Shown here: piece by piece, positions 17,979 to 51,419 of the stretch
Numbering within the stretch: position 1 is the stretch's first letter
How the letters are laid out: the number at the start of each line of letters is the position of its first letter
From: Dysgonomonas sp. Marseille-P4361
GTDB lineage: Bacteria; Bacteroidota; Bacteroidia; Bacteroidales; Dysgonomonadaceae
DNA length: 64,000 nt
Direction: 5' to 3'
Assembly (NCBI RefSeq): GCF_900343125.1
Contig: NZ_OPYL01000001.1
Span: forward strand, 124,001 to 188,000
Program-made: the position numbers and the translations under genes
Notes under the pieces: generated by a model
Databases searched by the model: none
Seen by the model: only the letters and a program-made list of their open reading frames with translations
What the model was told of the DNA's origin: nothing

Positions 17979-17980
17979 AT

Positions 17981-18023
17981 CGCGCAAACATTTTGCGACT
18001 GATTCTGCAATCAAAATGCGACT
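17981..18023. repeat. Prophage low-coordinate end: transposase-binding-like repeats
   Basis: TGCGACT occurs at 17994-18000 and 18017-18023 (23-base spacing), with a weaker CGCGCAAAC at 17981. The GCGAC core recurs, inverted, at the other prophage end (51363-51400). Repeated short sites near both ends are what MuA-family transposases bind. The phage stretch from here to 18141 holds no gene. Confidence 0.5.
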
Positions 18024-18074
18024 AAAAAAGTCAATTTTGTAAGTGATTAATAAATAACTATTTAATTGCAAAAT

Positions 18075-18115
18075 AATAGCGCAAAAGCTTATCAGATTCA
18101 AGTCTTTGCGCTATT
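18075..18115. terminator. Terminator of the minus-strand late operon
   Basis: AATAGCGCAAA and its complement TTTGCGCTATT pair around an 18-base loop, with T-rich sequence on both sides. It lies 27 bases beyond the methyltransferase stop on the minus strand. Confidence 0.75.
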
Positions 18116-18141
18116 TTTATAGTTTTAAAATGGTGTAAATC

Positions 18142-19011
18142 TTAAGATGCTTTTTGCATTTCTAAGATTCTTGTAAACATCATATCAATATATTTTGATT
18201 GTGGGTTTAATCGCGTTTCGTGCGTTTTTAAGACCGCATTTTCAAAAGGATTATTGATATTGTGATTAACGTTTAACCATTCGCAAAGCTCAATTAAAGA
18301 ACTCTTATTTGACGTAAAGAAAATAAAATTACTTTGATTAAGCACATTTATAACGTTTAAAAAGTCGGCAAGCTTCCAATATTGGTCGGAAAGATACGTT
18401 TTTGTATCAGTCGTTAAATATGGCGGGTCAACAACAAGCAAAACGCCTGGAACATCTTTATATTGATTAAATAGCTCCAAATAATCACACTTTACAATCT
18501 CTAATCCGTGCAAATAATCAGACGCTTTAACGTCGTAATTGCTTTGCTTTACGTTATTGTATAACGTTGAGGCTTTGAGCTCGTCGAAACTGGTTACATA
18601 GTTAGCTGAAAAGAGCAACGACGACGACAAAGTAATGTAATCGACAAAGCCTTTTCTTTCTTCTTTCTCAACTCTAGCAATAACATGACTTTTATAAGCC
18701 TCGTTTATACGCTTTTCTCGCGGGCAATCTTTTAAAATGACTCTTATGTCGCTCAATAGGTTGTTAGTTGCGACAACGGCTTGCAAACGCTTCGCATAGC
18801 CGTCGTAATCATTATAAATAACTTTACAACCTGGTAAAACTCGTTTAGCCGTGTGAGAAAGCAAGCCTGAGCCGCCGAATAGGTCGACAATGACCTTTAT
18901 ATCCTGGCTTTGGCTCAGCTCCTTTAATGTGCCGACAAATGGCTCGACAAAATTACGTTTTTGCCCCTGGAAAGGTAAGGGCGCAACTTTGTATCGTTTT
19001 AATATATTCAT
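18142..19011 (-). CDS. D12-class DNA adenine N6-methyltransferase (Dam/M.DpnII-like)
   Basis: 289 residues. Motif I is DLFGGSG (43-49) and the catalytic motif is DPPY (195-198), in the alpha-class order of D12 adenine methyltransferases. The N-terminal PFQGQKRNFV segment matches the usual start. It is the last gene of the late operon at the extreme end of the prophage, the position where Mu carries mom, so it likely modifies phage DNA against restriction. The recognition sequence cannot be read from the protein. GATC is typical for this class and is nearly absent from this prophage. Confidence 0.85.
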   Translation of the reverse strand: MNILKRYKVAPLPFQGQKRNFVEPFVGTLKELSQSQDIKVIVDLFGGSGLLSHTAKRVLPGCKVIYNDYDGYAKRLQAVVATNNLLSDIRVILKDCPREKRINEAYKSHVIARVEKEERKGFVDYITLSSSLLFSANYVTSFDELKASTLYNNVKQSNYDVKASDYLHGLEIVKCDYLELFNQYKDVPGVLLVVDPPYLTTDTKTYLSDQYWKLADFLNVINVLNQSNFIFFTSNKSSLIELCEWLNVNHNINNPFENAVLKTHETRLNPQSKYIDMMFTRILEMQKAS

Positions 19012-19020
19012 TTCAAATTT

Positions 19021-21630
19021 TTATTTTAAAGCCTCTAAAACTGCGCCAGTCATTCCGTCAGCAATTTGATAATAACCCTCTGTGCGTGGGTGAACATCAT
19101 TGTTCGCCATCAAAAGCGTTTCTTCGTACCTACTTGCAACCTTTTGTTCAATTAACGGATAACCGTAAAATCTATCCATCGCAAAGCCGCTTTGTGAAAT
19201 GATTACACCCTCATAATTTGCGAATGTTTCAACCGCTTTTTTGCTGAAATTGAAAATATTATAGCGTAACATATTGCGGCTTGTAGACCTCAAATCACTA
19301 TTTCGGGATTTAGGCAAGCAAAAAACTACTTTTCCGTTTGGATTGTCAGCAATAAAAGCGTCAATGATTTTCTTTGCATTATTAACAACTGTATTTATTT
19401 GCGAGCTTGTAAACAATACTCCCGAAAGGTCATTAATTCCGCAATCCATTGTCAAAACATCTATTTTTTCATCACTTGTAAGCCCTAAAACTTCAGTGCG
19501 ATAATATCCGAAATTCAAAACGCCTACGCCCTCGTTATCCTTTAATACCGAATAGTTTATTTTATCAACCGATGTAACGGTCAAAGTCGGGTTACTACTA
19601 CTTGTAGGCTTTAATATTGCGGGAAACGTTGTCGGCGGTGTAAATGCGTTCCAATGGTAGCCGATAGCATAACCCGTGCCGTCTACGTTAATTTTCCATC
19701 GGTGTATCAACATGATAGCGTTATTCACATTATCAAAATAATAGCCTCTAAATTTGTAAATATTGCTTGTATCTAAGTTCGGGTCTACACCCTCAAAATT
19801 AAATCTGTAAGCTGTATCACCATTTGCAAAGAAGCTATACGTTTTACCCGTTCTTGCTTCGTTTTTGTACGGCGAGGGGTGATGTGAGCCTAAAAATAGA
19901 GGTGTAACCCCGCTACATTCTGCTAGGTTTAATTGAAGTTGTTTCGTTACGTCTGCCGTGTCGTCGCTTGTGCTATCACCAATACAAATAATAGTTTTTT
20001 CAACATCGGGGCAAACGGCATCAACGACAACAAGTTTACTTGTTAGCGTTTTAACAACATTACCGCTTTTGTCTAACATTCTGAGCGAAAAATCAAACTC
20101 GCCAACATCGGCGGTTGTCGGTGTAAATCGAAAAGAGCGTTTATCCATTGCGCCTTTTGCGCACTCAGTATCGAACATAAACGGCGGTTGCCCATTGCCA
20201 TATTCAGGACAAAGTATAAAAGTGTCATAATACAGATTAAACTCTTTGCCTACTACTGCGTACATTTTAGGCGGCAAAAAAGCATCATAAACATTACTTG
20301 TTATTTCTTTTGTCCTCTTATAGAGTCGGATATTCTCGTTGTTGTCTTTATTGAATACACTAGCCGAAAGACCGCTATAAACAAACCATTGCGACTGTAC
20401 ATTTGCGGCGGGCGCAAAGTTTGTATCGACACAAATTATACCGTAAACATTCTCGACATATTGCACCCCATTTTTAGGAACGTTAAAAGATGCTACACTT
20501 ACAGCCTCGTCGCTAGTCCATCTATTCTTAGAACTCCATATATGAATATTCAGACTAGAGTCGCTAACATTAACAATCGTAAAACTGTAAAATAAATTCG
20601 GGTTATAAACTATATTAAGCTCTAAGCCCAAAATAAACTTACGCCATTGTTCGACTGTCATACTTGTACTGTCCCGAATTGATTTATCAAACGGGTTATA
20701 TTCTCTATCAGATATAGGGCTTTTTGTTGCAAGCTGTTTATTTGTTTCTGATAGCTGATTTTGAGCCTTAAACAATCTAATGTTTTCGCTATTATCGGCA
20801 TTAAATACTTTTGAGGACAACCCCGCATAAGCAGCCCATTGCGACTCTAACGATGATGCGGGCGCAAAGTTTGTATTAATAACAATAGAGCCGTAATCGT
20901 TAGTAATACCAACAACACCCGCTCCCGCAACTTGAAAAGTTGCTACTGTTTTAGCGTTTTGGTTTGTCCATCTATTCTCAGAGGAATAAATATTAACAGC
21001 AATGTAGTTGCTTGTTTTAACAACAATAGCGGGGCTGTAAAACAAATTCGGGTTATACTCTATATTAAGCTCTAAGCCCAAAATAAAGTTACGCCATTGC
21101 TCAACGGGCATTGCCGCACTTCCTTGTATTGTCGATATAAAAGGATTGTCGGCGGTTTGCTTTTGTAACAAGTCTTTTTTACGCACACCGTCCAAATAGA
21201 CAACTTGTTTTGTATTTATCCATTTATCTAGCCCTATATCATACTTGAAAATATAAGGGTCGCCATTCTCATTTTTTTGGTCGAGGACAAAATAAGAGTC
21301 TTTATCTCGTTTGGGCTTTGTTTCTAGGTCTGCAATATTAAGAGCGTCACCCATCGGGTTAAAACCAGCAACAACACTTGCCAAATCCTCTTTAGAGGCT
21401 TTTGTTTCTTCTAATTGAGTTACTTTTGCATTTGTTTGGTTTAAAGCTACTTTTTCGGCTTTTTCATTGTCCAGTTTCAAAAGGTCGTCATTGAGCCCCA
21501 AAATATTATTTTTCTGTATGCGGCTAGACCTATGATAGAAAGAGTCCATAAAGTCTCCAAAGTCCGCGCCGTTCGGCTCTTTGTCGTCGGCAAACTTGCC
21601 CTTAAGTTCGTTTATATCTTTAATTGCCAT
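19021..21630 (-). CDS. Tail fibre protein with tandem repeat domains and C-terminal SGNH hydrolase
   Basis: 869 residues. The N-terminus (1-160) is coiled-coil-like and probably binds the baseplate. Residues about 162-290 and 312-440 are a tandem duplication (each with VEQWRxFILGLELNI, YNPNLFYS, NRWT, TNFAPA, SENIRL/NENIRL). The C-terminal domain is SGNH/GDSL-like: CIGDST gives Ser 553, CGINDLSG is block III, and DVHP near residues 845-848 gives Asp and His. It probably binds and deacetylates a surface glycan during adsorption. The leader carries the phased AGTATTTAAAC-like repeats. Confidence 0.85.
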   Translation of the reverse strand: MAIKDINELKGKFADDKEPNGADFGDFMDSFYHRSSRIQKNNILGLNDDLLKLDNEKAEKVALNQTNAKVTQLEETKASKEDLASVVAGFNPMGDALNIADLETKPKRDKDSYFVLDQKNENGDPYIFKYDIGLDKWINTKQVVYLDGVRKKDLLQKQTADNPFISTIQGSAAMPVEQWRNFILGLELNIEYNPNLFYSPAIVVKTSNYIAVNIYSSENRWTNQNAKTVATFQVAGAGVVGITNDYGSIVINTNFAPASSLESQWAAYAGLSSKVFNADNSENIRLFKAQNQLSETNKQLATKSPISDREYNPFDKSIRDSTSMTVEQWRKFILGLELNIVYNPNLFYSFTIVNVSDSSLNIHIWSSKNRWTSDEAVSVASFNVPKNGVQYVENVYGIICVDTNFAPAANVQSQWFVYSGLSASVFNKDNNENIRLYKRTKEITSNVYDAFLPPKMYAVVGKEFNLYYDTFILCPEYGNGQPPFMFDTECAKGAMDKRSFRFTPTTADVGEFDFSLRMLDKSGNVVKTLTSKLVVVDAVCPDVEKTIICIGDSTSDDTADVTKQLQLNLAECSGVTPLFLGSHHPSPYKNEARTGKTYSFFANGDTAYRFNFEGVDPNLDTSNIYKFRGYYFDNVNNAIMLIHRWKINVDGTGYAIGYHWNAFTPPTTFPAILKPTSSSNPTLTVTSVDKINYSVLKDNEGVGVLNFGYYRTEVLGLTSDEKIDVLTMDCGINDLSGVLFTSSQINTVVNNAKKIIDAFIADNPNGKVVFCLPKSRNSDLRSTSRNMLRYNIFNFSKKAVETFANYEGVIISQSGFAMDRFYGYPLIEQKVASRYEETLLMANNDVHPRTEGYYQIADGMTGAVLEALK

Positions 21631-21662
21631 TTTAATACTATTTAATCAGTGTTTAAATACTG
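21631..21662 (-). repeat. Phased AT-rich leader repeat, copy 1
   Basis: Read on minus, AGTATTTAAAC, ACTGATTAAAT and AGTATTAAA follow one another with 11-base phasing directly before the tail fibre ATG. Related arrays stand before the genes starting at 30252, 36623 and 44196. Confidence 0.6.
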
Positions 21663-21664
21663 GT

Positions 21665-23051: not shown

Positions 23052-23904
23052 TTGGTATAAAGTTTAATATCAAATCTTTGTCGGCTATCTGATAATAGCC
23101 CGCATAAGGAATACTCCGCGCATTGATAGGTCTAAAATTTACCAGTGTACCGTAACGGCTCGACGCCTGGATAAGCTCGGCGATTTCTACGCCGTCAACG
23201 ACTTGCAACTTATCGACTAAAGACTGATTGTAATAAAAGCCGTTAAATGCTAAATTGCTTATATAATTACGGATTGCGTCTTGCACTGGTGTATCGCCCG
23301 ACCCGTCTAAACGTTTGCCCTCACTGTCTAAAATCAAAGGGTTATAATAAATATCCATTTCCAGGCGTAAGTCGTCGGCTGGTGAGTTAATAATGGATAT
23401 GCGCACACCCGCATCTTTTACACGTCCCATATAAGCCGTAAGAGCGACGAGCTCCGCACTTTTTATCGGTTGTTTTATGCCACCGTTATCGGTTGCTACT
23501 TTCAGATATAAGATACTTTGGTCGCTCGCCTCGATAGCCGCCGCAAATTTGACGACACGCGCCGCCTCTATTTGTTCGGTCGTCAGTGCCGAGTTATCGT
23601 ATTGGTCGCTTTCGCTTATCAGTTCGTGCCCGAATTGAAACTCTTTTGCACGCGTGGCGTACCAGTTCGGCGTATGGGCTTTATTATTTTTCAATATGCT
23701 CAGTATATCAATTTTAAACTGGTCGAAAACTTTATATACCAGCGATATAGCCGTCGCCACACAAAAGAAAAATATATTTTCCAGCGATACGGTCGAGAAT
23801 TGCTCCTCAAAGCTTTTGCCCGGCTGGAGGTCGTAACGCTCTTTTATGGTTTCGTTAGCCATAAACGCGTCAGTTATTTGCTTTTTTATCTCTGCTATTG
23901 TCAT
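23044..23904 (-). CDS. Baseplate J-like protein (Mu gp47 equivalent)
   Basis: 286 residues. The pattern of an N-terminal helical part, SELVALTAYMGRVKDAGVRI and the C-terminal GVEIAELIQASSRYGTLV matches the gpJ/gp47 baseplate wedge family. Proteins of this family form the wedge around the tail hub in contractile tails. It overlaps the gp48-like gene and the spanin gene by a few bases. Confidence 0.85.
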   Translation of the reverse strand: MTIAEIKKQITDAFMANETIKERYDLQPGKSFEEQFSTVSLENIFFFCVATAISLVYKVFDQFKIDILSILKNNKAHTPNWYATRAKEFQFGHELISESDQYDNSALTTEQIEAARVVKFAAAIEASDQSILYLKVATDNGGIKQPIKSAELVALTAYMGRVKDAGVRISIINSPADDLRLEMDIYYNPLILDSEGKRLDGSGDTPVQDAIRNYISNLAFNGFYYNQSLVDKLQVVDGVEIAELIQASSRYGTLVNFRPINARSIPYAGYYQIADKDLILNFIPNE

Positions 23905-24431
23905 ATAAATTTGCGTATTATAGGTGCAAGCTTGCGAATAATGAGTATTACAAAACCGATGAATAAAGAAGCGGCAACGCTAAGCCCCAAAACTTGTAAA
24001 AACGTAAAGCCTTTTTTCTCTTTTGTCTTTTCCGAGCCCTCAAACTTCGATTTATCTTTGCTTTGGTCTGTCAGTTCAGATCGTCCCGTCTCATTCGTTT
24101 GTATCGTTGTCGAGTCTGTCTCCAGCTCGTTAGTTTCTTGCTCCAGGTCTATATTGGTTTCGCTCTTTTTGGGACGCTCGCCCGTTTCGGGGTCGATTGG
24201 TTTATCGGTGTCATATTCTACGTGGTTAAGCTTTATTTTTAGCTTTTCGTTGATTGCTTTTTGCAATGCCTGGCTGACTACCTGGTCGAGCGTTGAGCTG
24301 TCAATCAAAGAGATATTATTCTCTATATTTCTTTGCTCTTTTTGCTTTGTGTCGCTTGTCATATCTTTAGGAGCTCGGCAACCCACCAGGATAACCGAAA
24401 GCAATAACAGTATATAAATAGCTCGTTTCAT
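23901..24431 (-). CDS. Probable unimolecular spanin (u-spanin)
   Basis: 176 residues with a lipoprotein signal at the N-terminus (LVGC, lipid-attached Cys 18), a long charged, low-complexity periplasmic part (about 20-140), and one C-terminal transmembrane helix (about 144-165) with a basic tail. A protein lipidated in the outer membrane and anchored at its other end in the inner membrane is the definition of a u-spanin, which fuses the two membranes as the last step of lysis. It directly follows the amidase and holin genes. Confidence 0.75.
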   Translation of the reverse strand: MKRAIYILLLLSVILVGCRAPKDMTSDTKQKEQRNIENNISLIDSSTLDQVVSQALQKAINEKLKIKLNHVEYDTDKPIDPETGERPKKSETNIDLEQETNELETDSTTIQTNETGRSELTDQSKDKSKFEGSEKTKEKKGFTFLQVLGLSVAASLFIGFVILIIRKLAPIIRKFI

Positions 24432-33495: not shown

Positions 33496-33957
33496 TTACT
33501 GTTTGTTTTGGAACTCGGTTAATAATCTCTCGTATTCTTTCGGATTGTCAGCTCTCAGCTTTTCAAGTCCGCGCGGGTCGTCTTGCGACCATTTCAAATA
33601 GTCCCAGCCAGCACGATCGCCAGTTGTTAAATTTGTTCTTTTGGTTAGGTCGTTTAACGAAGTGCCAGCCTGGGCGGGCTTTTTGTCAATCAAAGCCTTA
33701 ACCTTGTCAAAGTTTAAGAGCGCCAGTTCGCGTTGGTCTGCGACCTCGTCTTGCGTCAGTTTGCCGTCTTTTACAGCCTGCGACAAATACGTGTCGATTT
33801 CCGCCTCTTTTAGCTTCTTATTTTCTTTTTCTAGCTTGTCGATTTCTGTGTCCTTTTCAGCAACGGCGAGTTCAATTTCCTTTGCTGTCGGATTAACTGA
33901 CAAACCAAGACTCTGACGGGTTGCCGCCGTCAATACGATAGTGTCTTTTTCGTCCAT
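33496..33957 (-). CDS. Nested scaffold protein from an internal start (Mu gpZ-like)
   Basis: An in-frame ATG at 33957 begins a 153-residue product identical to the scaffold part. Its first 13 bases, ATGGACGAAAAAG, equal those of the full gene's start, and both are preceded by A-rich sequence. Phage Mu makes its scaffold gpZ from the same kind of start inside gene I. Confidence 0.6.
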   Translation of the reverse strand: MDEKDTIVLTAATRQSLGLSVNPTAKEIELAVAEKDTEIDKLEKENKKLKEAEIDTYLSQAVKDGKLTQDEVADQRELALLNFDKVKALIDKKPAQAGTSLNDLTKRTNLTTGDRAGWDYLKWSQDDPRGLEKLRADNPKEYERLLTEFQNKQ

Positions 33958-36622: not shown

Positions 36623-37102
36623 ATGTTTTTAGAGATTGACGAATTAAGGTCGGTAATGTACAGTTACCAGCTTGAAACAATAATAGAGAACGACAACACT
36701 ATCGCGGTTATGGCGATAGAGTCCGCCGTCTCCGAAATGAAAAGTTACCTAAACCCCAGCAACCAAAAGCAATGGCAAGACGGACGACCGCAATACGACG
36801 TCGATAAGATATTCAGCGCCCAGGGCGGCGACCGTGACGCACTTATCCTGGAGCTATGCAAGGATATAGCGCTCTATCGTGTTTGTCGGTTGTCGAATGT
36901 AGATATAATACACGAACACGTTAAAGAACGTTACGACCGAGCTATCGACTGGCTCGAAAAGGTTGCGGGCGTAGGTAATCACAAAGGCACGCCGACAATA
37001 ACGCCAAACTTACCAACAATAAAAACTGACGAGGGCGAGACTGGATCGTCAGCAAAGAAACTTTTTAGATATGGCAGTCGCCCCAAGTTTAACCACGAAT
37101 AA
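36623..37102 (+). CDS. Mu gp36-like protein (DUF1320)
   Basis: 159 residues. Pattern FLEIDELRSVMYSYQLETII, helical AVMAIESAVSEMKSYLNP, ALILELCKDIALYRVCRLSNVD and CRLS matches the gp36/DUF1320 family of Mu-like phages, thought to join head and tail. In Mu the gene follows the capsid gene; here it lies between terminase and portal. Confidence 0.75.
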   Translation: MFLEIDELRSVMYSYQLETIIENDNTIAVMAIESAVSEMKSYLNPSNQKQWQDGRPQYDVDKIFSAQGGDRDALILELCKDIALYRVCRLSNVDIIHEHVKERYDRAIDWLEKVAGVGNHKGTPTITPNLPTIKTDEGETGSSAKKLFRYGSRPKFNHE

Positions 37103-37113
37103 AATAAAGTCTT

Positions 37114-38349
37114 ATGATTAAGCAGTTTCTAAACCGACAAATAGCAACACTGAGCGCCAAACTCGGCAACACTCAAAGCATAGCAAGCCACAAACCCAGG
37201 TTTGCACCTCAGACCGTGCGCAAGTCTGTAAGCCAAACCGTGCGCGATATTGCAGACTTAAGACGAGCCCGTGAGCTGGCATTGTCAGCTCAGAATCCGA
37301 AACAATACCTTTTGCAAGGTATCTACACGGATATAATGGACGACGCCCACCTTACCTCTCAAATAATGAATCAAAGGGAGCAAACAATCGCGGCGGGCTT
37401 TGAAATGCAGACACCCGACAAAAAGCTCGACGAGAAAATGACGGCTATAATAAACGAGCTCCCATTTATGCAAGACTTATTCGGGCAAATAATAGATAGT
37501 GAGTATTTCGGTTATTCGCTGGTCGAGTTGTCAGTCGAAAGCGGCGTACAAAAAGCCACATTGATAGACCGCCGAAACGTAGTTCCCGACTTTGGGCGAT
37601 TTTATGATGATTACACCTACGACAATTATATCGAGTACCGCCAAGCTAAGGAGTACGGGCGCTGGTTACTGGAGTTCAACGCTGAGCACCTAGGCATCTT
37701 AAATAAAGCCGTACCGCACGCGTTATTCAAAAAGTTTGCGCAGTCGTGCTGGTCTGAACTTTGCGAAATTTACGGCATACCGCCCCGCGTAATGAAAACA
37801 GACACACGCAACCCCGATATGCTGGATAATGCCGAAAAAATGATGCGCGATATAGGGGCGGCGGCGTGGTTTATTATTGATAGTACCGAGGAGTTCGAGT
37901 TCGCCCAGGGCGTCAGTACAAACGGCGACGTTTATAATAACCTCATACGCTTGTGTAATAACGAAATGAGCATGCTCGTTTCGGGGGCGATAATCGGGCA
38001 AGACACCAAGAACGGCAACGAAAGCAAGGAAAAGGTAAGCGTCGATATAGCAGACAATCGCGTGCAAGCTAATAACCGCATGATTGAAAACTATATGAAT
38101 AGTCTTGTTATACCAGCACTGGGACGCATCGGCTGGATACCATTAACCAACTCGAAATTTAAGTTTTCAGCCGCCGAGGACTTAGACAAGCTTTTCGATA
38201 TGACGGTTAAAATAATGCCTCATAAGAAAGTGTCGGACGAATGGATAAAAGAAAAATTCGGGATTGAGGTCGAGGGCGACCGCTTCGAGACGATACAAGC
38301 GACTGAGCCGACCAGCAACAAAGAGGGCAAAAAATTAAATTTTCAGTAG
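37114..38349 (+). CDS. Portal protein (DUF935, Mu gp29-like)
   Basis: 411 residues. DIMDDAHLTSQIMNQREQTI, the YGRWLLEFNAEHLGILNKAVPHALFKKFA segment, WSELCEIYGIPPRVMKTD and LVSGAIIGQDT are typical of DUF935 portals. It forms the dodecameric ring for DNA entry and exit. It is followed by the MuF gene, as in Mu. Confidence 0.9.
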   Translation: MIKQFLNRQIATLSAKLGNTQSIASHKPRFAPQTVRKSVSQTVRDIADLRRARELALSAQNPKQYLLQGIYTDIMDDAHLTSQIMNQREQTIAAGFEMQTPDKKLDEKMTAIINELPFMQDLFGQIIDSEYFGYSLVELSVESGVQKATLIDRRNVVPDFGRFYDDYTYDNYIEYRQAKEYGRWLLEFNAEHLGILNKAVPHALFKKFAQSCWSELCEIYGIPPRVMKTDTRNPDMLDNAEKMMRDIGAAAWFIIDSTEEFEFAQGVSTNGDVYNNLIRLCNNEMSMLVSGAIIGQDTKNGNESKEKVSVDIADNRVQANNRMIENYMNSLVIPALGRIGWIPLTNSKFKFSAAEDLDKLFDMTVKIMPHKKVSDEWIKEKFGIEVEGDRFETIQATEPTSNKEGKKLNFQ

Positions 38350-38381: not shown

Positions 38382-39938
38382 TTGCACGATTATTATAATT
38401 GTACGTGCCCCGATTGCGGCGGGTACGTTGAGCCTATTGTATTGTCGGCAACCGAAGAAAGCAACCTACAAAGCGCATTTAATAAGGTTGTACGCTGGGC
38501 GTATAAAGAGAAAAAAACAGAAATTACACCCGACGACCTGGATAACCGAAACGTGCAAGGCTTGACAAACGAAATAAACAACGTTTTGCAAGACGCACTA
38601 CGCAAAGGCATTGTTTACGAGATACCCGACGAAATGATGCAACACTTTAGCAATAATGTGTATGTGTTTTCGGGTTGTAAGACTTTCGACGAGCTCCGAG
38701 CTCTGAGCGACTTACTAAAAGACGAGAAAGGCGAAATAAAGCCCTTTTCTAAGTTCTTTAAGGACGTGCGCCAGGTGCATAACAATTACAACAAAAACTA
38801 TTTAGAAAGCGAGTATCTATTCGCCACACAGTCGGCACAAATGGCGAGTAAATGGGCTGACTTTGAAAAGGACGGCGACCGTTACAATTTGCAGTACCGA
38901 ACCGCAAACGATAGCCGTGTGCGCTATGAGCATGCCGTATTGCACGATATCACGTTACCGCCAAGCGACCCGTTTTGGGCTAAATATTTTCCGCCGAACG
39001 GCTGGAGGTGTCGTTGTAATGTGGTGCAGGTCCGCGTCAATCGTTACCCAGCAACGGATAGCACAACGGCTAACGACCTGGGCGAAAAGGCGACTTATAC
39101 AGTAGGCAAAGGAGGCGTTAACACGTCGGCAATGTTTCGCTTCAATCCTGGAAAGCAAAAAATAATCTTTCCCGAAACACACCCGTATTTTAACAATAAA
39201 GAGGTTGTAAAGAAATTGAGCGAGCAAGGTAAAGCCAGCGACGCACTGATAAATTTAAAAGACTTTATCAAAGGTGACGAGCCAACCAATAACGAGGTAA
39301 AGAATATACTAAGCAAATACGCCGAGCTCAGCCCCGACGACTTTAGACAAGGGCTTGACAAAGTAGGCTTTGCAAAGTCCCGAAGCTATTTAATGCAACA
39401 TAGCATGGCATATAAACCCTCGACAAACGAATGGGTGAGGGGCTCGAAAATATCTATATCGACGCACACCTTTACAATTAAGATAGACGGCAAGCTCGAC
39501 ACCTTTAACGCGGCTGACGAGCTAAAAGGGGCGCTCGGAGCTATCAAGAAAGGCGAAAAACTGACATTTAAGCAAGAATATAGCGTCGAGTCTTTATGGC
39601 ATGAGATATTGCACGCTAAAACGAAAACAAAGCCGACCAACTTTACGAACGTTACACGGCAAGAAATGGAAACCGTTAACCAGTTTGTCGCCCGACATAC
39701 TTACGGCGATTTTTTGAAACGTTTAGGCGGTACGGCTCAGCACAAAGATAAGATATTGAGCGACGGGCTGGGTTATCAGCGACACGTTGCCGATTTCAGA
39801 AAGCTGTTAAAAGATAACGGTATAGATGAAACGAAAGCAGTCGAAGCGCTCCAACCTAAACTGTTAAGCAACTACGGCACGATAGGACGTGAAACAAAGA
39901 AGTTTATAAATGAAAACAAGAAGAAAAGCGAAGATTAA
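38382..39938 (+). CDS. MuF-type head morphogenesis protein with C-terminal HExxH domain
   Basis: 518 residues. The MuF part (about 40-270) has RYNLQYRTANDSRVRYEHAVLHD, PPSDPFWAKYFPPNGWRCRCNV and ETHPYF. A zinc-ribbon-like CTCPDCG opens the protein. The C-terminal part (about 330-518) has WHEILH (407-411), a zincin-type HExxH. MuF proteins often carry variable effector domains, so a virion-borne protease is plausible. Start is TTG at 38382; no ATG or GTG lies upstream in frame. Ends in a 4-base overlap with a convergent minus-strand gene. Confidence 0.78.
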   Translation: MHDYYNCTCPDCGGYVEPIVLSATEESNLQSAFNKVVRWAYKEKKTEITPDDLDNRNVQGLTNEINNVLQDALRKGIVYEIPDEMMQHFSNNVYVFSGCKTFDELRALSDLLKDEKGEIKPFSKFFKDVRQVHNNYNKNYLESEYLFATQSAQMASKWADFEKDGDRYNLQYRTANDSRVRYEHAVLHDITLPPSDPFWAKYFPPNGWRCRCNVVQVRVNRYPATDSTTANDLGEKATYTVGKGGVNTSAMFRFNPGKQKIIFPETHPYFNNKEVVKKLSEQGKASDALINLKDFIKGDEPTNNEVKNILSKYAELSPDDFRQGLDKVGFAKSRSYLMQHSMAYKPSTNEWVRGSKISISTHTFTIKIDGKLDTFNAADELKGALGAIKKGEKLTFKQEYSVESLWHEILHAKTKTKPTNFTNVTRQEMETVNQFVARHTYGDFLKRLGGTAQHKDKILSDGLGYQRHVADFRKLLKDNGIDETKAVEALQPKLLSNYGTIGRETKKFINENKKKSED

Positions 39939-44222: not shown

Positions 44223-44337
44223 TAACCACATTCAAAAACCAAAGAGAAAACCATACCAGCAACACCCAAAACACCGCACTACCTATCAGAATACCCGACC
44301 AGGTAAAAATCACCGTTTTGTTTAGCCTTATTTTCAT
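44200..44337 (-). CDS. 45-residue membrane protein
   Basis: A short ORF starting in a 4-base ATGA overlap with the Gam stop codon, which is good evidence of coupled translation. It encodes a basic N-terminus (MKIRLNKT) and one hydrophobic helix (about 9-36) rich in Trp. Function unknown. A role as a small lysis or membrane-active protein is possible. Confidence 0.6.
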   Translation of the reverse strand: MKIRLNKTVIFTWSGILIGSAVFWVLLVWFSLWFLNVVNNYLNSL

Positions 44338-44852
44338 TCGCTTGTCTCTTTTTTAAGCTCAATGTAAAATGTTTCATCTTGCACCACTTCGACGCCGTAA
44401 TCTTTCATTTTTGCCGCCATGCCCTCTTTATCGCGGTCGGCGATAAGTTTTTCTTTGTCAAGTTCAACCGTTTTACGCACATACTCAGGCGCTAATTTTT
44501 CTAAAAGCTTAGCGACGGCTTTTTGTGTAAAGCCTTTGAGTGTTTTAATCTTTGGCGTACCCATACGAAAGCCGATAGTACCGTGCGTTAGCTCGACGCT
44601 CTTTTTCTTCGAGAACTGAGTCTCTTTGTTTTCCAGTGCGTAAGCTTGCACCAGGTCGAACGCTTCGCTTTTCTCAGCCTCCAGCTTCGCCAGCTCGTCG
44701 GCTTTCTCGTCGCGTAATTTTGTGAATTTGACATCCAGGTCGGCGTTAATCTTTGTGATGCTGGCGTCAGCTTTTGCGTATGCCGCCAACGCGTCGTTCA
44801 TTTTCTCGTCTGAAATGTTCGTCAATACTGTTTTCTTTGCTCTCTTTGCCAT
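44334..44852 (-). CDS. gam: Host-nuclease inhibitor Gam
   Basis: 172 residues. Coiled-coil N-terminus (KINADLDVKFTKLRDEKADELAKLEAEK), then the Gam core VELTHGTIGFRMGTPKIKTLKGF and YVRKTVELDKEKLIADRD. Mu Gam is Ku-like: it binds double-strand DNA ends and blocks exonucleases. It lies in the early operon as in Mu. Confidence 0.92.
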   Translation of the reverse strand: MAKRAKKTVLTNISDEKMNDALAAYAKADASITKINADLDVKFTKLRDEKADELAKLEAEKSEAFDLVQAYALENKETQFSKKKSVELTHGTIGFRMGTPKIKTLKGFTQKAVAKLLEKLAPEYVRKTVELDKEKLIADRDKEGMAAKMKDYGVEVVQDETFYIELKKETSE

Positions 44853-45067: not shown

Positions 45068-45520
45068 TTAGCTGTCTGCAATACTTTCTAAGAGCGCATC
45101 CGCCCAGGCGTTATGTGTGGCGGCGTTCTTTTCGCCAAACCGTCGATAAAGAGCTTTAAGCGTCATAAGGTCTATATCGTTGAATCGGTTTACATTTGCC
45201 GCCTTACATGCCACGCGCTTAACGTAGTCGGTGTCGGGCTTATACTTTCGGCGCTCCAGGTTTGAAAATATCGCCGCTATCAATCTTTTGCGGGCTTTAT
45301 CCAAGTTCGGATCGTCGGCTCTTTTCTTTTGGCTTAAGTCTCGGCGCATTTGCTGGTAAGCTCGCGGGTACTTAGCGTACAATTCGACCAGGCTATCAGT
45401 TTTACCGTTTGAGTAATCAAATACAAGCGCCTTGCGCACCTCGTCTCTATCTTCGTTGCCTTGTATATTTCGCATATAAGCGAATAGCCAGGCGTGCGGG
45501 TTATTAGTTTTTGTTGTCAT
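45068..45520 (-). CDS. Early phage protein in the GemA region, unknown
   Basis: 150 residues, basic and helical. RKRLIAAIFSNLERRKY and DIDLMTLKALYRRFGEKNAATHNAWADALL give a weak resemblance to phage regulatory GemA-type proteins, which also occur near gam. I would not assign it. The 3-base gap to the upstream gene suggests coupling. Confidence 0.5.
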   Translation of the reverse strand: MTTKTNNPHAWLFAYMRNIQGNEDRDEVRKALVFDYSNGKTDSLVELYAKYPRAYQQMRRDLSQKKRADDPNLDKARKRLIAAIFSNLERRKYKPDTDYVKRVACKAANVNRFNDIDLMTLKALYRRFGEKNAATHNAWADALLESIADS

Positions 45521-46551: not shown

Positions 46552-47436
46552 TTATTTGCCACTTTTACGGGCTTTCTTGATGTTCGCCTTTGTTAGCTTC
46601 TTAACTCGTCGTAAATCGCTCTCACAATCGTTTATTATACTTTGTAAAACTTCGTTGCTAGTCAAACCATTTGCGGTGCATATACCCGCTATATCTTCGT
46701 ACGTGTTGCCTGGCAACTCAATAAAGCGGCGACCTACACGGCTATATATCTCGTTATATCCTTTTCGCTTGTTTTTAACCCCTTTATCTATTCGTTTTTC
46801 CAGGTAGTCAGTAGCCATCAGCACCAAGCCGCAATAGTCCTCCAGTTGATTGTAAAGCGTGATAAAGAAGTAAAGCACCTGGTCGCTCAATTTGTCAGCT
46901 TCGTCCAGGATAAGGAGCGGGCATTCTTTCGATTTTAGAGTCTTAACCGCACGGTGCACCAGTTGATTAACCGAGCCCGACGTATCTTCGCCCATCACCT
47001 CCAGCAATTCCAGCATAAACGTTTTTCTATTCCAATACTCGGAGCAAACCAGGTGATAAGCGTTTGCGTTTTCTTTTACATATTTCTGAGCCGTCCCAGT
47101 CTTACCGCATCCAGCGTGCCCGATAATTGCATGTACACCGCTTTCGCCTTGTATATCGCTTTGTGCATCGTTCAAAAGAGCGTAAAGCATATTATAAACC
47201 GTTGTACGTGTAATTACCCAGCTTTCAGCCGCAAAGCCTATTTGCGCGGCTACGTTGCGCCACATTTCGTCGGCGATTAAGTCCCATTTACCGTTCTCAG
47301 GCGTACCCGTTAGTATATTCGATACCGTAGTGGCTGATACATTTCTTAAAGTCCTGGCGGCTTTATTTTGTCCGCCTACACGTTCGCAATAGCTTTTAAA
47401 AGCTTCTTTTATTTGCTGTTTAAGTAATTCATTCAT
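46552..47436 (-). CDS. MuB-like transposition target ATPase
   Basis: 294 residues. N-terminal helix-turn-helix (NKAARTLRNVSATTVSNILTG), Walker A GHAGCGKT (106-113) and Walker B LLILDEAD (174-181), AAA+ fold. MuB selects target DNA, activates the transposase and gives target immunity. It directly follows the transposase gene (22-base gap), as in Mu. Confidence 0.9.
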   Translation of the reverse strand: MNELLKQQIKEAFKSYCERVGGQNKAARTLRNVSATTVSNILTGTPENGKWDLIADEMWRNVAAQIGFAAESWVITRTTVYNMLYALLNDAQSDIQGESGVHAIIGHAGCGKTGTAQKYVKENANAYHLVCSEYWNRKTFMLELLEVMGEDTSGSVNQLVHRAVKTLKSKECPLLILDEADKLSDQVLYFFITLYNQLEDYCGLVLMATDYLEKRIDKGVKNKRKGYNEIYSRVGRRFIELPGNTYEDIAGICTANGLTSNEVLQSIINDCESDLRRVKKLTKANIKKARKSGK

Positions 47437-47458: not shown

Positions 47459-49450
47459 TTAAAATAGGTCGTATATATCTTGCGGTTTCGCCTTGCGTTT
47501 TTCAGCTTGTTTTTTCAGTATATCGGCGGGACTGGGCTCAATGCTTTTGCGTCCAGCATCTATGTTTCTTATGTTTTTGTGTTGTCCCTGGCTGTCGGTA
47601 AGTACAAGTTTTGCCAGTGTGCCGTTTAGTTGTGGGTTATCCTCTAGGAACTCGCGCACGGTGTCACCAGTTTCGCCTCTAAAGTCAGTTACATAGTCCA
47701 CAACCTCGTCGTTAAATCTATTCATGCGCGCAAGCTCTGAGGCGTCGCCGTCGGTGCGGTCTTTTAACGCCATCGGTTGTATGTGCTTTTTTTCCAATAC
47801 AAAGCGGAGCGTTTCGTCGTCGTTTATAGCCAATACGCGGTCGGTGTCGGCTGGGTCGTACATAACAGACCACTGAGTCGAAGCAAAACGACGGAACGCC
47901 AGGTCGAAACAGTCAAAAGATTGTCTTATCCCTTTAATGGTTACGTGTAAACCGTCGCCTTGCATTAAGTTTTTGCGACCCGTTGACTCGCCAAAGTGAT
48001 ATAAATAACTTTCGTACGATAGCTCGATTTTATTCTCGTCTTTTGTCTCAGCCCACAATCTCAGATATTCGTCGCGTTTTTCCTGGCGTTCCTTTTCGAT
48101 AATAAGTTCAACCATTGCACATACCCCATCATAGTCGGGAAAGTGTTTTTTATATTTGTTCAAAAACTCGATGTTTGGTTGTTTGTCCTTATTCGACGTA
48201 ATACCAAAGCCCGACCAGTTAGGCTGGAGCTGACAATATGTTTTATTCAGATAACCGAAATACGGCTCTATTATCTTTGCCTTTGCGTTCTTCGCACGGG
48301 CGGGCGTTACGTGTTTACCCATAGCCGCATAAAGAGGCGTTAAGGCTTTAATTGCGTAGCGGTCGGCTTGTATTTGGTGCGTACGGTACATCTTGCCAAA
48401 TAGTTCGGAGGTGTGGCGTGCCGCATTGCGTAAAGCCGCCTTTATTAGTTCGGGGCTTTCGTGTGTACCCACTGCGTAACCTATCGGATATTTACAGCAT
48501 GGGTCTAACACTACGACAACCGTCGGGCGATTATGATAAGTTATTGTTTTACCGTTGTGCTTTTGATAAAGGAGTTCTACGTCCCAGCCGTCAAGCGTCC
48601 AAAAATAAAGCGGGTTTTGTGGCGCTTTACGTTTGGCTTGCATCATTTTAGTATTGTACATAGCCACCGAGCCACGACGTCCCGAAAATATTTCTAAATC
48701 GTATTTATCTCTGTAACGGGCGATAGTGTGCCCCGTTATTTTCTGCCAGCCCGCACCCTCAGCCACTTGATTATAAAGCCTTGCGATACGCTCATTGTCA
48801 AAATTGCGCGGGTCGCCTAAAAGCTCAATTATTAAGCTTTCTTTTACATTGTCGTCCACTTTAGCCGCGTGCTGGTTAGTAAAATTCTTATGTATAAGGC
48901 TTTCTAAACCCTCTTTTTTGTAAAGGTTAAATCTATCTCTCAGCCTGGCTGGATAAGCGGGCAAAGTGTGAGGGTACACGGTACGGTCTAAGGCTTGCAC
49001 ATACTTGTTTATGCTCTCCCAGGTGCGCGACATTTTACCGCCCTTTACTTTCTTTGGGGCTACCTTATCAGCGATAAGTCGCTTTATAGCATCCAATATG
49101 CGCGCATTATTAAAATACTCTATACGTGTTTGTTTTGGCAAATATCGCCCGTCGCTCAGTCTGTAATTTTCAAAGAAATTGTTTGCCTCAGTGCTGGGGG
49201 CGATATATTCGTCCAATAGATTAAGTTGTACAATCTCGTAAGGGTCGCCGCCGATTTTCTCTTTTACGAGTTCCTTAAATCGGTCGGGCATACTATCATA
49301 AGACACCAGCGCTGGAGTATTGCGACTGGCGCGACGTACAACGTATATTTGTTTACGTTTTGCGAGTGCCTTATAATTGTCTAATGTTAGAATATCATTT
49401 TCCACTAACCAACTAGCCGAAACGCAAAGTAAATTTTTGTAATATTCCAT
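47459..49450 (-). CDS. MuA-like DDE transposase
   Basis: 663 residues, the size of MuA. An N-terminal HTH region (about 10-60) and middle DNA-binding domains lead to the RNase H-like core: Asp 287 (TLDGWD), Asp 363 (QADRY) and Glu 395 (IIEPYFG), the DDE triad with spacing like MuA. A C-terminal region for MuB/ClpX contact follows. Start MEYYKNLLCVSASWL matches known Bacteroidota MuA forms. It drives integration and replicative transposition. Confidence 0.95.
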   Translation of the reverse strand: MEYYKNLLCVSASWLVENDILTLDNYKALAKRKQIYVVRRASRNTPALVSYDSMPDRFKELVKEKIGGDPYEIVQLNLLDEYIAPSTEANNFFENYRLSDGRYLPKQTRIEYFNNARILDAIKRLIADKVAPKKVKGGKMSRTWESINKYVQALDRTVYPHTLPAYPARLRDRFNLYKKEGLESLIHKNFTNQHAAKVDDNVKESLIIELLGDPRNFDNERIARLYNQVAEGAGWQKITGHTIARYRDKYDLEIFSGRRGSVAMYNTKMMQAKRKAPQNPLYFWTLDGWDVELLYQKHNGKTITYHNRPTVVVVLDPCCKYPIGYAVGTHESPELIKAALRNAARHTSELFGKMYRTHQIQADRYAIKALTPLYAAMGKHVTPARAKNAKAKIIEPYFGYLNKTYCQLQPNWSGFGITSNKDKQPNIEFLNKYKKHFPDYDGVCAMVELIIEKERQEKRDEYLRLWAETKDENKIELSYESYLYHFGESTGRKNLMQGDGLHVTIKGIRQSFDCFDLAFRRFASTQWSVMYDPADTDRVLAINDDETLRFVLEKKHIQPMALKDRTDGDASELARMNRFNDEVVDYVTDFRGETGDTVREFLEDNPQLNGTLAKLVLTDSQGQHKNIRNIDAGRKSIEPSPADILKKQAEKRKAKPQDIYDLF

Positions 49451-49473
49451 AATCTTAAATCTTTTTTTGTTGT

Positions 49474-49534: not shown

Positions 49535-49722
49535 GCCTTTACTTGCTTTTTTACTTCGTTCTCTGTTAGATAGCACGGCACGCCGTTAAAGTGTCTTTTC
49601 TTCGGGTGACAAGGGATAAAGAGGTATTTGTCGCCGCTCATGCCGTAATACATCATTGTCGCTTTGTGTTGCTGATTTTCACAGTTATACACATTGTCAA
49701 TTTTTAAATCTTTTACATTCAT
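49525..49722 (-). CDS. Small early protein, unknown
   Basis: 65 residues, no recognised family: VKDLKIDNVYNCENQQHKATMMYYG and FIPCHPKKRHF. It overlaps the upstream regulator gene by 4 bases and its stop TAG lies within the tRNA-like structure (acceptor/D-arm junction). Confidence 0.6.
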   Translation of the reverse strand: MNVKDLKIDNVYNCENQQHKATMMYYGMSGDKYLFIPCHPKKRHFNGVPCYLTENEVKKQVKASV

Positions 49723-49928
49723 AGCGTTACCTTTGTTTCACGGTTAATAATTTCTAATACATCGCAAGCATCTTTTACTATCTTTCTAGCTAATTCGGTA
49801 TTTCGTTCTCTCTCTCCAGTTAATACCATGCGCACATATTCAGTTGAACACTTGTGTTTACGCGCGATAACTGCGATTTTTAAATCTTTTAATTCGTCGG
49901 AGTTGAAAATTTTTGTTTGCATAATCAC
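49719..49928 (-). CDS. Cro/Ner-like regulator
   Basis: 69 residues. DLKIAVIARKHKCSTEYVRMVLTGERER is a helix-turn-helix like small phage regulators. It is the first gene of the early operon, divergent from the repressor across the operator region, the place of ner in Mu and cro in lambda. It probably represses its own operon or the repressor promoter. Confidence 0.7.
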   Translation of the reverse strand: MIMQTKIFNSDELKDLKIAVIARKHKCSTEYVRMVLTGERERNTELARKIVKDACDVLEIINRETKVTL

Positions 49929-49954
49929 AACAATTTGTATTTTTATTGTTTACT

Positions 49955-49984
49955 TTGTTCTTAACATCGCAACAAATATATTTA
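49955..49984 (+). promoter_or_regulatory. Repressor promoter
   Basis: TTG at 49955-49957, 19-base spacer, TATATTTA (49977-49984), one base off the consensus -7. It overlaps the early promoter -7 element head-on and borders operator O1, so the two promoters cannot be used at once. Confidence 0.55.
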
Positions 49985-50000
49985 GAAATTTCTAAACAAG
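49973..50000 (-). promoter_or_regulatory. Early (lytic) promoter
   Basis: On minus, TATATTTG (49973-49980) is a perfect -7 element, and a TTG stands 20 bases upstream. The spacer contains the 16-bp operator palindrome O1, so repressor bound there must block RNA polymerase. Confidence 0.65.
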
Positions 50001-50035
50001 CAAAGAAATATCTAAATTATTTAGAATATTCTAAA
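49981..50035. promoter_or_regulatory. Operator array O1-O3
   Basis: O1 TTTAGAAATTTCTAAA (49981-49996) and O3 TTTAGAATATTCTAAA (50020-50035) are perfect 16-bp palindromes; O2 AAAGAAATATCTAAA (50002-50016) is a degenerate copy. Centres lie about 20 and 19 bases apart, about two helical turns, so dimers could bind on one face of the DNA. Confidence 0.8.
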
Positions 50036-50038
50036 CTA

Positions 50039-50740
50039 ATGGAGGTAAATAATCGGATAAAAGAGTTTTGCTCTTGGTACTCAAAAGAAAACAAGATTAC
50101 ACAAAAAGAGCTTTCGGGTCTTGTTGACATATCTAGTAGTCAGTTAAGCTCTATTATTAACGGACGAGACAAAGTCGGCTTGTTAATAGTTGAGAAATTT
50201 CTAAACTTGGATACTCGTTTAGATGCGAATTGGCTAATAACTGGAAAAGGTGAAATGTTGAAAGAGTACGACAAAAACTCTCAAACAGTTTTTAAACTTA
50301 AAACTGACTACAATTTAAATAATCAGTTTATACCGCTTTATGAGATTGACGCATCGGCGGGTCTTATAACCTTATTTGATAGCCAAATAACACAAAACCC
50401 AGTAGGAGAAATAAGCATACCAAACGCCCCTAAATGCGACGGGGCGCTATATGTGCGTGGCGATAGCATGTACCCGATATTAAAATCGGGCGATATAGTA
50501 GCGTATAAGACAATACACGACCCGAATAATATTTTTTGGGGCGAAATGTATTTAATAGATATTGACGTCGAGGGTGAACAATACCTCACTATAAAATATA
50601 TTCAACGCTCAGACAAAGGCGACGACTATGTTTATTTAGTAAGCCATAACGGAAACCACCAGCCCGTTCACATACTAAAGTCTAATATCAGAGCCTTAGC
50701 CCTTGTAAAAGCAAGTATTCGTTATAACAGTATGGGATAA
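50039..50740 (+). CDS. S24-family phage repressor (LexA/CI-like)
   Basis: 233 residues from the ATG at 50039. The longer ORF from 49946 runs through promoter and operators and is rejected. N-terminal HTH (ITQKELSGLVDISSSQLSSIING); C-terminal S24 domain with an Ala-Gly cleavage site (DASAG, about 107-108), catalytic Ser 143 (GDSMYP) and Lys 186 (LTIKY). The Ser-Lys dyad suggests RecA-stimulated self-cleavage, so SOS induction, unlike the Mu c repressor. Confidence 0.88.
   Translation: MEVNNRIKEFCSWYSKENKITQKELSGLVDISSSQLSSIINGRDKVGLLIVEKFLNLDTRLDANWLITGKGEMLKEYDKNSQTVFKLKTDYNLNNQFIPLYEIDASAGLITLFDSQITQNPVGEISIPNAPKCDGALYVRGDSMYPILKSGDIVAYKTIHDPNNIFWGEMYLIDIDVEGEQYLTIKYIQRSDKGDDYVYLVSHNGNHQPVHILKSNIRALALVKASIRYNSMG
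50193..50206 (+). promoter_or_regulatory. Extra operator copy inside the repressor gene
   Basis: AGAAATTTCTAAAC at 50193-50206 repeats bases 49984-49997 of O1 exactly, including the full AGAAATTTCT core. It lies about 155 bases into the coding sequence. Confidence 0.5.
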
Positions 50741-50753
50741 AAGATTATAAATT

Positions 50754-50921
50754 ATGAAAAGGAAAACGGGTAAAACAATAGGTGTCATTTTTGCAATATT
50801 ATTTTCAATTATTGCGCTCATTCTTATTTTAGTCAATCAGTATGCGTTTGGTATTATAATCTTGCTTTTTGGAGCTCTTATTTCTGTCGGTTTGATTAAA
50901 AACAAGAATTACACAGACTGA
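50754..50921 (+). CDS. 55-residue two-helix membrane protein
   Basis: A short ORF 13 bases after the repressor stop: basic N-terminus (MKRKTGKT) and two hydrophobic helices (about 9-28 and 31-47). Probably cotranscribed with the repressor and so made in the lysogen; a superinfection-exclusion role would fit but is unproven. Confidence 0.5.
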   Translation: MKRKTGKTIGVIFAILFSIIALILILVNQYAFGIIILLFGALISVGLIKNKNYTD

Positions 50922-50981
50922 AAACATATAAATACCTATCATTTAAACTATTACATGTATTAAATAAATTCCATAAGGGGT

Positions 50982-51140
50982 ATGATAACTGTAATTTTAG
51001 CGGTTTTAGTGTTCTTTTTCGTTGTTATGTATCTTTATGATGCCCTTAAAAGTCGGTATTCTGTCCCCCCATTTGTCCCCCCATTTGTCCCTTTTAAGTC
51101 AAAAAAGCCATATTTTGCACGTTTTAGGGCAAGTGATTAA
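50982..51140 (+). CDS. 52-residue membrane protein with VPPF repeats
   Basis: One N-terminal helix (about 2-19), then a short repeat VPPFVPPFVPF and a basic tail. DNA repeats underlie the protein repeats (CCCCATTTGTC units). It is the last ORF before the phage end. Weak evidence for expression beyond its position downstream of the repressor. Confidence 0.4.
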   Translation: MITVILAVLVFFFVVMYLYDALKSRYSVPPFVPPFVPFKSKKPYFARFRASD

Positions 51141-51362
51141 ATAGTGTTTTAATGGTGTTTTATTAGTATTTTATCAAAGTCATTTAAACGGTCGCACCCG
51201 CGTTTTAAACAGTTCTCGCCTATGTTTACACCCAAAAACAACAAAAGAGGCTATAAAGCCCCTCCATTTTCGTCCCCAGTTAATACTGAGTTAACATATA
51301 ATTCGCATTATGTTTGCTCACCTCATCACCCACAAAACAAGGCTAACTCCTTTATTTATAAG

Positions 51363-51400
51363 TGTTCGCGTTCAGTTTGTCGCGTTCAGAGTTTGTCGCC
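51363..51400. repeat. Prophage high-coordinate end: transposase-binding-like repeats
   Basis: Read inward on minus, GCGACAAACTCTGAAC, GCGACAAACTGAAC and GCGAACAC follow one another. The GCGAC core and an ACTCTG/ATTCTG extension match the repeats at the other end, in inverted orientation, as expected for MuA-type attachment ends. Confidence 0.6.
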
Positions 51401-51419
51401 TTTTGTATTTACCCCCGTA

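What the first reader, a model, noticed from the sequence alone, without database searches (positions are those of the whole stretch)
17979..51419. GATC is almost absent from the prophage, which carries a Dam-like methyltransferase
Scanning by eye I find only about four GATC sites in 33.4 kb (24079, 33615, 37044, 45310, all GATCG), where base composition would predict over a hundred. The host flanks show many (for example near 724, 808, 1024, 3068, 57450, 58350). Strong loss of one palindrome points to long selection by restriction at GATC. The prophage also ends with a D12-class methyltransferase whose usual target is GATC. Loss of sites plus methylation looks like two layers of escape. The normal host count suggests either another usual host or a host that is itself modified.
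Basis: partly seen in the sequence, partly recalled or inferred. Interest (0 to 1): 0.7.

Follow-up and report, generated by a model that had tools for sequence, protein, structure and literature searches.

The report
Prophage purged of many restriction sites
A Mu-like prophage in a Dysgonomonas bacterium has lost not only GATC but dozens of the short sequences that bacterial restriction enzymes cut, which looks like a record of the defences its ancestors met.

Summary
The GATC loss is real: 4 sites in 33,441 bases, against 124 by base composition, 63 by a Markov model and a codon-permutation mean of 72 (minimum 48). Host flanks are near expectation (97/126). But GATC is one of many: GGCC 0, CCGG 1, GGNNCC 0/63, GCWGC 2/63, CYCGRG 0/26, and 32 of 64 six-base palindromes absent (about 1 expected). 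This is broad Type II restriction-site avoidance, about as wide as in T7 and wide for a temperate phage. The Dam reading is not supported: the D12 gene belongs to a family of phage methyltransferases at the mom position, has no significant similarity to a DpnII-linked methylase, and GATC depletion is the same in 57 phages with it and 29 without (p=0.79). Its target is unknown. The present host has no detected C5-methylase, DpnII- or HaeIII-type nuclease, so other hosts probably selected for the loss. New here: a distantly related prophage in the same genome shares the avoidance profile (rho 0.64, shared DNA masked), and a third Dysgonomonas phage does so in part. A host-genus effect holds over 37 phages, but without Dysgonomonas it is not significant.

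The parts
17979..51419 (.). Mu-like transposable prophage, depleted of GATC, GGCC, CCGG and many other restriction words
   Evidence: genes
17971..17978 (+). CTATTATA, left copy of the 8-bp direct repeat flanking the prophage
   Evidence: sequence read; empty site not examined
51420..51427 (+). CTATTATA, right copy of the repeat
   Evidence: sequence read
24079..24082 (+). remaining GATC site
33615..33618 (+). remaining GATC site
37044..37047 (+). remaining GATC site
45310..45313 (+). remaining GATC site
23820..23823 (+). only CCGG site of the prophage
18142..19011 (-). D12-class adenine methyltransferase (289 aa), last gene of the phage, target unknown
   Evidence: PF02086 1.1e-7, PADLOC MTase_II 7.6e-59, phrog_56
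19021..21630 (-). 869-aa protein without family match, probably tail fibre by position; most of it shared with the co-resident prophage
   Evidence: no family; 2132 bases 96.5% identical
37114..38349 (+). Mu-type portal
   Evidence: PF06074 7.4e-65
38382..39938 (+). Mu F-like protein
   Evidence: PF04233 3.1e-12
44334..44852 (-). Gam-like end protection protein
   Evidence: phrog_491 3e-27
46552..47436 (-). AAA ATPase in the MuB position
   Evidence: PF13401 7.1e-16
47459..49450 (-). MuA-like transposase
   Evidence: phrog_310 7.3e-37; 40.6% identical to the TCUEAP3 transposase
49946..50740 (+). S24-type repressor
   Evidence: PF00717 1.2e-13

Best explanation
The prophage is a Mu-like transposable phage of Bacteroidota whose DNA has been purged of the recognition words of many Type II restriction enzymes, because its unmodified DNA repeatedly entered cells with different enzymes. 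GATC is one of these words. Shown: depletion of GATC and of many other palindromes, confined to the prophage and beyond composition and codon-usage nulls. Shown: a distantly related prophage in the same genome has nearly the same profile. Inferred: Type II enzymes of a community of hosts, not of the present host, did the selecting. Inferred: the terminal D12 methyltransferase is a separate anti-restriction layer, in the place of mom in Mu, acting on some other, unknown sequence.
For: Codon-permutation null; host flanks without the depletion; word-specific pattern with other palindromes at or above expectation; depletion of GATC, GGCC and CCGG in each of six blocks of the prophage; GGCC and CCGG also purged in the co-resident prophage (0 and 0) and the Dysgonomonas ZJ279 phage (1 and 1); profile correlation 0.64 with the co-resident prophage after masking shared DNA; no C5-methylase, DpnII- or HaeIII-type nuclease in the own genome but DpnII-type matches in 24 of 295 Bacteroidales genomes, 18 of them strong, and HaeIII-type in 8 of 295, 6 over the cut-off.
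Against: No restriction enzyme for any of the missing words was identified in a Dysgonomonas genome: neighbours of C5-methylases gave no named Type II nuclease. Profiles also carry a general word-usage signal (scrambled words correlate 0.39 on average between the two prophages). Some depleted words (CTATAG, TAATTA) have no enzyme that I can recall. CCWGG is over-represented, unexplained.
Confidence: 0.8

Rival explanations
1. One reading: selection at GATC in particular, with a Dam-like phage methylase giving a second layer at the same site.
For: GATC 4 of 63-124 expected and a D12 gene. The Paludibacter relative with a 73% identical enzyme has GATC 0/62; the co-resident prophage with a 52% identical enzyme has 14/65.
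Against: GGCC and CCGG are more depleted. A methylase acting on GATC should relax, not accompany, the loss. No significant similarity to a DpnII-linked methylase. GATC depletion is equal in carriers and non-carriers, p=0.79, with 18 of 57 carriers above 0.6.
Confidence: 0.07
2. The enzyme does methylate GATC but was acquired after the sites had been lost.
For: The gene sits at an exchangeable place (mom, D12 or other methylases in relatives), so a recent arrival is possible. GATC specificity was not measured.
Against: Sequence is far from the DpnII-linked methylase, and the nearest relative, MuA 67%, already carries a 73% identical enzyme.
Confidence: 0.08
3. The profile is inherited from the phage lineage rather than selected in the host community of Dysgonomonas.
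For: Transposase identity predicts profile similarity (coefficient 0.28); GGCC loss is common in the family. Without Dysgonomonas the genus effect is not significant (160 of 2000 permutations reach it).
Against: The best profile match is a prophage with a 23-28% identical transposase in the same genome. GATC is normal in the 61% relative (142/118) and zero in the 67% relative, where CCGG is 60/110.
Confidence: 0.2
4. Host-like word usage or structural bias against palindromes, without restriction.
For: Scrambled words also correlate between the two prophages (mean 0.39 in 30 sets); host flanks have a mild palindrome deficit (0.74).
Against: Host flanks keep GATC and CCGG; several palindromes in the phage are normal or over-represented; palindromes correlate more than any of the 30 scrambled sets (0.63 against a maximum of 0.53).
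Confidence: 0.05

Closest known systems
Restriction-site avoidance by phages (Rusinov et al. 2018, PMC6286503; passages read)
   Same: Elimination of Type II recognition words from a phage genome; GATC among the avoided sites there.
   Different: There, elimination is notably rarer in temperate than in non-temperate phages; here a temperate phage has dozens of words eliminated.
Phage T7
   Same: GATC 4/118 and 23 of 64 six-base palindromes absent in its first 33.4 kb; by summed observed/expected (0.44) it is depleted somewhat more than the prophage (0.52).
   Different: A lytic coliphage (recalled); its profile does not correlate with this one (rho -0.01).
Mu mom and the terminal modification genes of Bacteroidota transposable phages (Mu, TCUEAP3, Hankyphage p00, fF4, SuMu)
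   Same: A DNA modification gene at the right end of a transposable phage; p00, SuMu and fF4 genes are related to ours. The comparison of the terminal gene with mom is already in the fF4 paper (PMC7761591, passages).
   Different: Mom is an acetyltransferase-type enzyme (annotation); ours is a D12 methyltransferase of unknown target.
Palindrome avoidance in broad-host-range plasmids (PMC10359461; passages read)
   Same: Loss of 6-bp palindromes that grows with host range.
   Different: A phage; 4-bp words are also eliminated here, which that paper did not find for plasmids against core genes.

Membership tests
Type II restriction-site avoidance | Recognition words far below expectation with composition and codon usage held | tested here: met
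Type II restriction-site avoidance | Word-specific, not all palindromes | tested here: met
   CTTAAG 14/12, AAGCTT 23/27, GAGCTC 18/8 against 32 absent
Type II restriction-site avoidance | Matching enzyme in the host | tested here: not met
   No DpnII- or HaeIII-type nuclease and no C5-methylase in the own genome. Present elsewhere in the order (24 and 8 of 295). Only these two nuclease families were searched.
Dam / GATC-specific D12 methyltransferases | D12 domain with motifs FxGxG and DPPY (motif names recalled) | tested here: met
   PF02086 32.3 bits; FGGSG and DPPY in the alignments
Dam / GATC-specific D12 methyltransferases | Sequence similarity to a GATC system's methylase | tested here: not met
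   BLASTP E 0.095, 19 bits, to the methylase beside a DpnII-type gene in L157; one such pair compared. The NVPHG segment of L156 and L157 is missing
Dam / GATC-specific D12 methyltransferases | Methylates GATC | not testable with these tools
   Indirect only: GATC depletion equal with and without the gene family
Mu-like transposable phages | MuA-like transposase with MuB-like ATPase, Gam and Mu-type portal | tested here: met
Mu-like transposable phages | Short target duplication at the ends (5 bp in Mu, recalled) | tested here: inconclusive
   An 8-bp direct repeat flanks the prophage, but no empty site was examined
Mu-like transposable phages | Replication by transposition | not testable with these tools
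   none

The most novel reading that the evidence does not exclude
The set of missing words is a fingerprint of the restriction enzymes of a host community. Transposable phages of one host genus converge on it whatever their ancestry, so prophages can be read as an inventory of the Type II systems, perhaps including undescribed ones at words such as CTATAG or ACAGG, that circulate among Dysgonomonas and its neighbours.
Probability: 0.35. Interest if true: 0.7.

Novelty: new member of a known kind. Interest (0 to 1): 0.48.

Why it matters
Site elimination is reported as notably rarer in temperate phages; here a temperate transposable phage, and some of its relatives, have purged dozens of words. 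If the profile reflects the host community, a prophage becomes a record of which restriction systems its ancestors met, even where the present host has none of them. It also separates two things the finding had joined: the loss of GATC and the phage's own methylase.

Tried and rejected
Methylase specificity from neighbouring nucleases: 11 of 393 Bacteroidales genomes, the own one included, carry a relative at E <= 1e-20. Of 19 fetched stretches, 18 hold a relative; 16 of these have phage structural genes beside it and 2 only a partner gene known from Hankyphage. Nine neighbouring proteins scanned against Pfam and PADLOC gave no nuclease; most neighbours were not scanned. Specificity from fold: structure prediction was off; the profile against PDB sequences found nothing better than E 0.07.

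CCWGG as the methylase target: the excess is strong in the window phage and the co-resident one, but a phage with an 84% identical enzyme has 8/13 and four at 57-60% have 0 to 8 of 7 to 15 expected, so rejected.

Host restriction genes: 16 proteins beside C5-methylases of Dysgonomonas genomes and 3 from the own contig C4 gave HATPase, YhcG, NOV_C, HNH, other or no families, and no named Type II nuclease.

Genus test: the effect of shared genus on the profile (0.087) stays without near-duplicates (0.078, 0 of 2000 permutations) and with genus-level labels only (0.080, 2 of 2000), but falls to 0.033 (160 of 2000; 4 of 30 scrambled word sets reach it) without Dysgonomonas. The difference between rho 0.64 (co-resident) and 0.54 (Paludibacter) was not tested.

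Rows dropped: the genome-contig scan kept 80 of 131 relatives, of which 65 had at least 7 kb. The 57 and the 29 without the gene were compared over different regions (late 10 kb, early 13 kb). In one search, 36 of the 80 loci had a usable host label; with four further phages this gave 40, of which 3 were too short; 5 of the 37 carry family-level labels. One host side (L104) is masked and counts as zero. L084 and L085 have identical transposases and are probably one phage. The sum of 138 expected sites for 21 absent palindromes is post hoc. Yardstick phages were a hand-picked dozen with the window phage. An earlier scan of genome contigs with the single protein found none.

Full report
Observation. 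The prophage at 17979-51419 contains exactly four GATC, at the places given, all followed by G. Base composition predicts 124 and a maximal Markov model 63. With codons permuted within each of 38 phage genes, which keeps proteins and codon usage, 300 shuffles gave mean 71.8 and minimum 48. Host flanks are near expectation, 97 against 126. The limits are right: CTATTATA stands directly outside both ends.

It is not only GATC. GGCC occurs 0 times (106 expected) and CCGG once (84 expected). Of the 64 six-base palindromes 32 are absent, where about one is expected by a second-order Markov model and 1.6 on average, 7 at most, by codon permutation. In the flanks 11 are absent with 6.0 expected, which is the maximum of their shuffles (mean 5.8), so the host has a mild deficit of its own. 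Twelve of the 64 contain GATC, GGCC or CCGG; leaving these out, 21 of 52 are absent, with a summed expectation of about 138 (chosen after the fact). Degenerate words follow: GGNCC 2/77, GGNNCC 0/63, GCWGC 2/63, CYCGRG 0/26, CCRYGG 0/17, CTRYAG 1/17, CCSGG 1/39; and asymmetric ones: ACAGG 0/34, CCTTC 1/32, GAACC 2/36, CCAGA 5/35 (several of these words overlap one another). Other palindromes are untouched or over-represented (CTTAAG 14/12, AAGCTT 23/27, GAGCTC 18/8), so the effect is word-specific. GATC, GGCC and CCGG are depleted in each of six blocks along the prophage.

What the element is. It has a MuA-like transposase, an AAA ATPase in the MuB position, Gam, Mu portal, F-like protein, S24 repressor and tail genes. 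The nearest relative found is a prophage of Paludibacter sp. 221, transposase 67% identical. The genome G022, of the same genus as the window's genome, matches Dysgonomonas sp. ZJ279 by the lengths and contents of two contigs, so the host is taken to be a Dysgonomonas. The methyltransferase gene is the last gene, where Mu has mom. That place holds a mom-like gene in Elizabethkingia phage TCUEAP3, an adenine methylase without detectable similarity to ours in Winogradskyella phage Peternella and relatives of ours in Hankyphage p00, SuMu and, truncated, fF4. The fF4 paper already compares the terminal gene with mom (PMC7761591, passages).

Is the enzyme Dam-like? It has the D12 domain (32.3 bits) but no significant similarity to the methylase beside a DpnII-type gene in a Bacteroidales genome (E 0.095), and it lacks the NVPHG segment seen in two of those. 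Relatives occur in 11 of 393 Bacteroidales genomes. Of 18 copies whose surroundings were fetched, 16 lie beside phage structural genes, and nine scanned neighbours show no nuclease, so it behaves as an orphan phage enzyme; not all neighbours were scanned. GATC observed/expected has median 0.46 in 57 carriers and 0.41 in 29 transposase relatives from genomes without it, p=0.79; 10 of 57 and 5 of 29 are below 0.2, 18 of 57 and 10 of 29 at or above 0.6. A phage with an 84% identical enzyme has 17/44, those at 57% and 58% have 54/59 and 28/38, and p00 has 131/169, which do not. The simplest reading is that the gene and the loss of GATC are independent, and the target of the enzyme remains unknown.

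Where the pressure came from. The own genome has no C5-methylase and no DpnII- or HaeIII-type nuclease. Its D12 matches are the two prophage genes and a fragment, which is also its only N6_N4-type match. It has four N6_Mtase (PF02384) matches, two of them strong. DpnII-type matches are in 24 of 295 Bacteroidales genomes (18 strong, 6 weak and partial, all over the family cut-off), HaeIII-type in 8 of 295 (6 over the cut-off), C5-methylases in 14 of 25 Dysgonomonas genomes. So the present host is probably not the selecting host, and enzymes for at least two of the words exist in the order. I did not find matching enzymes within the genus, and families for other words were not searched.

Comparison of profiles. 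A second transposable prophage in the same genome (contig C4; transposase 23-28% identical) lacks GGCC and CCGG altogether, has GATC 14/65 and lacks 30 of 64 palindromes. After masking 4.4 kb of shared DNA, its profile over 52 words correlates with that of the window phage at rho 0.64, with 16 shared absences (of 21 and 22). The Paludibacter relative gives 0.54 (6 of its 7 absences shared), the Dysgonomonas ZJ279 relative 0.44 (12 of its 15 shared), host DNA 0.21, T7 -0.01. So a distant relative in the same genome matches at least as well as the nearest relative in another genus; the difference was not tested. Among 37 phages with labelled hosts, shared genus raises profile similarity by 0.087 after transposase identity and GC; 1 of 2000 label permutations and 0 of 2000 reach this, and scrambled non-palindromic words give 0.034 on average and 0.071 at most in 30 sets. 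Against a general rule: without the Dysgonomonas phages and near-duplicates the coefficient is 0.033, reached by 160 of 2000 permutations and 4 of 30 scrambled sets. The shared profile is therefore shown for Dysgonomonas phages and only suggested beyond.

How unusual. In the first 33.4 kb, or the whole if shorter, the numbers of absent palindromes (expected) are: window phage 32 (1.1), co-resident 30 (1.8), SuMu 24 (0.9), T7 23 (0.7), B40-8 22 (1.8), B124-14 20 (1.5), Paludibacter phage 16 (0.9), B3 14 (9.5), Mu 12 (5.4), p00 11 (2.2), lambda 5 (2.7), crAss001 41 (21.0). By summed observed/expected, T7 (0.44), SuMu (0.46), Mu (0.47) and the co-resident prophage (0.51) lie slightly below the window phage (0.52), and T7 has 16 six-mers at p<1e-3 against 15; the distinction of the window phage is the number of words wholly gone. 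Among 65 transposase relatives and the window phage the median palindrome observed/expected is 0.66 (host sides 0.73, n=50). Some go further: Alistipes loci L084 and L085 reach 0.11 and 0.13, with 52 and 47 of 64 palindromes absent in 8.8 and 13.4 kb. The passages read say that elimination is notably rarer in temperate phages (PMC6286503) and that palindrome loss grows with plasmid host range (PMC10359461). My searches for such loss in Mu-like or Dysgonomonas phages listed nothing on it; they cover open-licence full texts only, and listings were read as titles and starts of abstracts.

Unexplained. CCWGG is three to four times over-represented in both prophages of this genome (106/26 and 73/27; window phage 101 against a codon-permutation mean of 33, maximum 47), and CAGG is preceded by C in 106 of 118 cases. 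Displacement from forbidden neighbours may explain part of it.

Verdict. The depletion is real and much wider than reported; it is a known kind of phenomenon, wide for a temperate phage; the Dam link is not supported; the profile shared by phages of one host genus is the part worth following.

Noticed in passing
window 19019-21150: 2132 bases, most of the 869-aa gene beside the methylase, are 96.5% identical to a stretch of the otherwise distant prophage on contig C4 of the same genome: a recent exchange, probably of a tail-fibre gene, between two transposable phages.
   Followed up: partly
window 17979-51419 and the C4 prophage (L041-L043): CCWGG is over-represented (106/26 and 73/27), while it is absent from the Dysgonomonas ZJ279 phage (0/13) and depleted in several relatives.
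   Followed up: partly
L084 and L085 (Alistipes MAGs): Transposable phage early regions with almost no six-base palindromes: observed/expected 0.11 and 0.13, and no GGCC, CCGG, CATG or CTAG. The two transposases are identical.
   Followed up: no
L025 41030-41668 and relatives in L158, L159, L160, L162, L165, L170, L172, L177: A 212-aa gene with a thymidylate synthase domain (PF00303) stands beside the D12 methylase in Hankyphage and at least eight other loci, perhaps a second DNA-modification gene. The window phage shows none there.
   Followed up: partly
G000:C4:430728-431060: A 153-aa N6_N4-type methylase fragment overlapping the end of a topoisomerase gene, the only N6_N4-type match of the genome.
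   Followed up: partly
L030 31160-31624 (phage fF4): The terminal methylase of fF4 is only 154 aa and covers about half of our protein, so it looks truncated.
   Followed up: no
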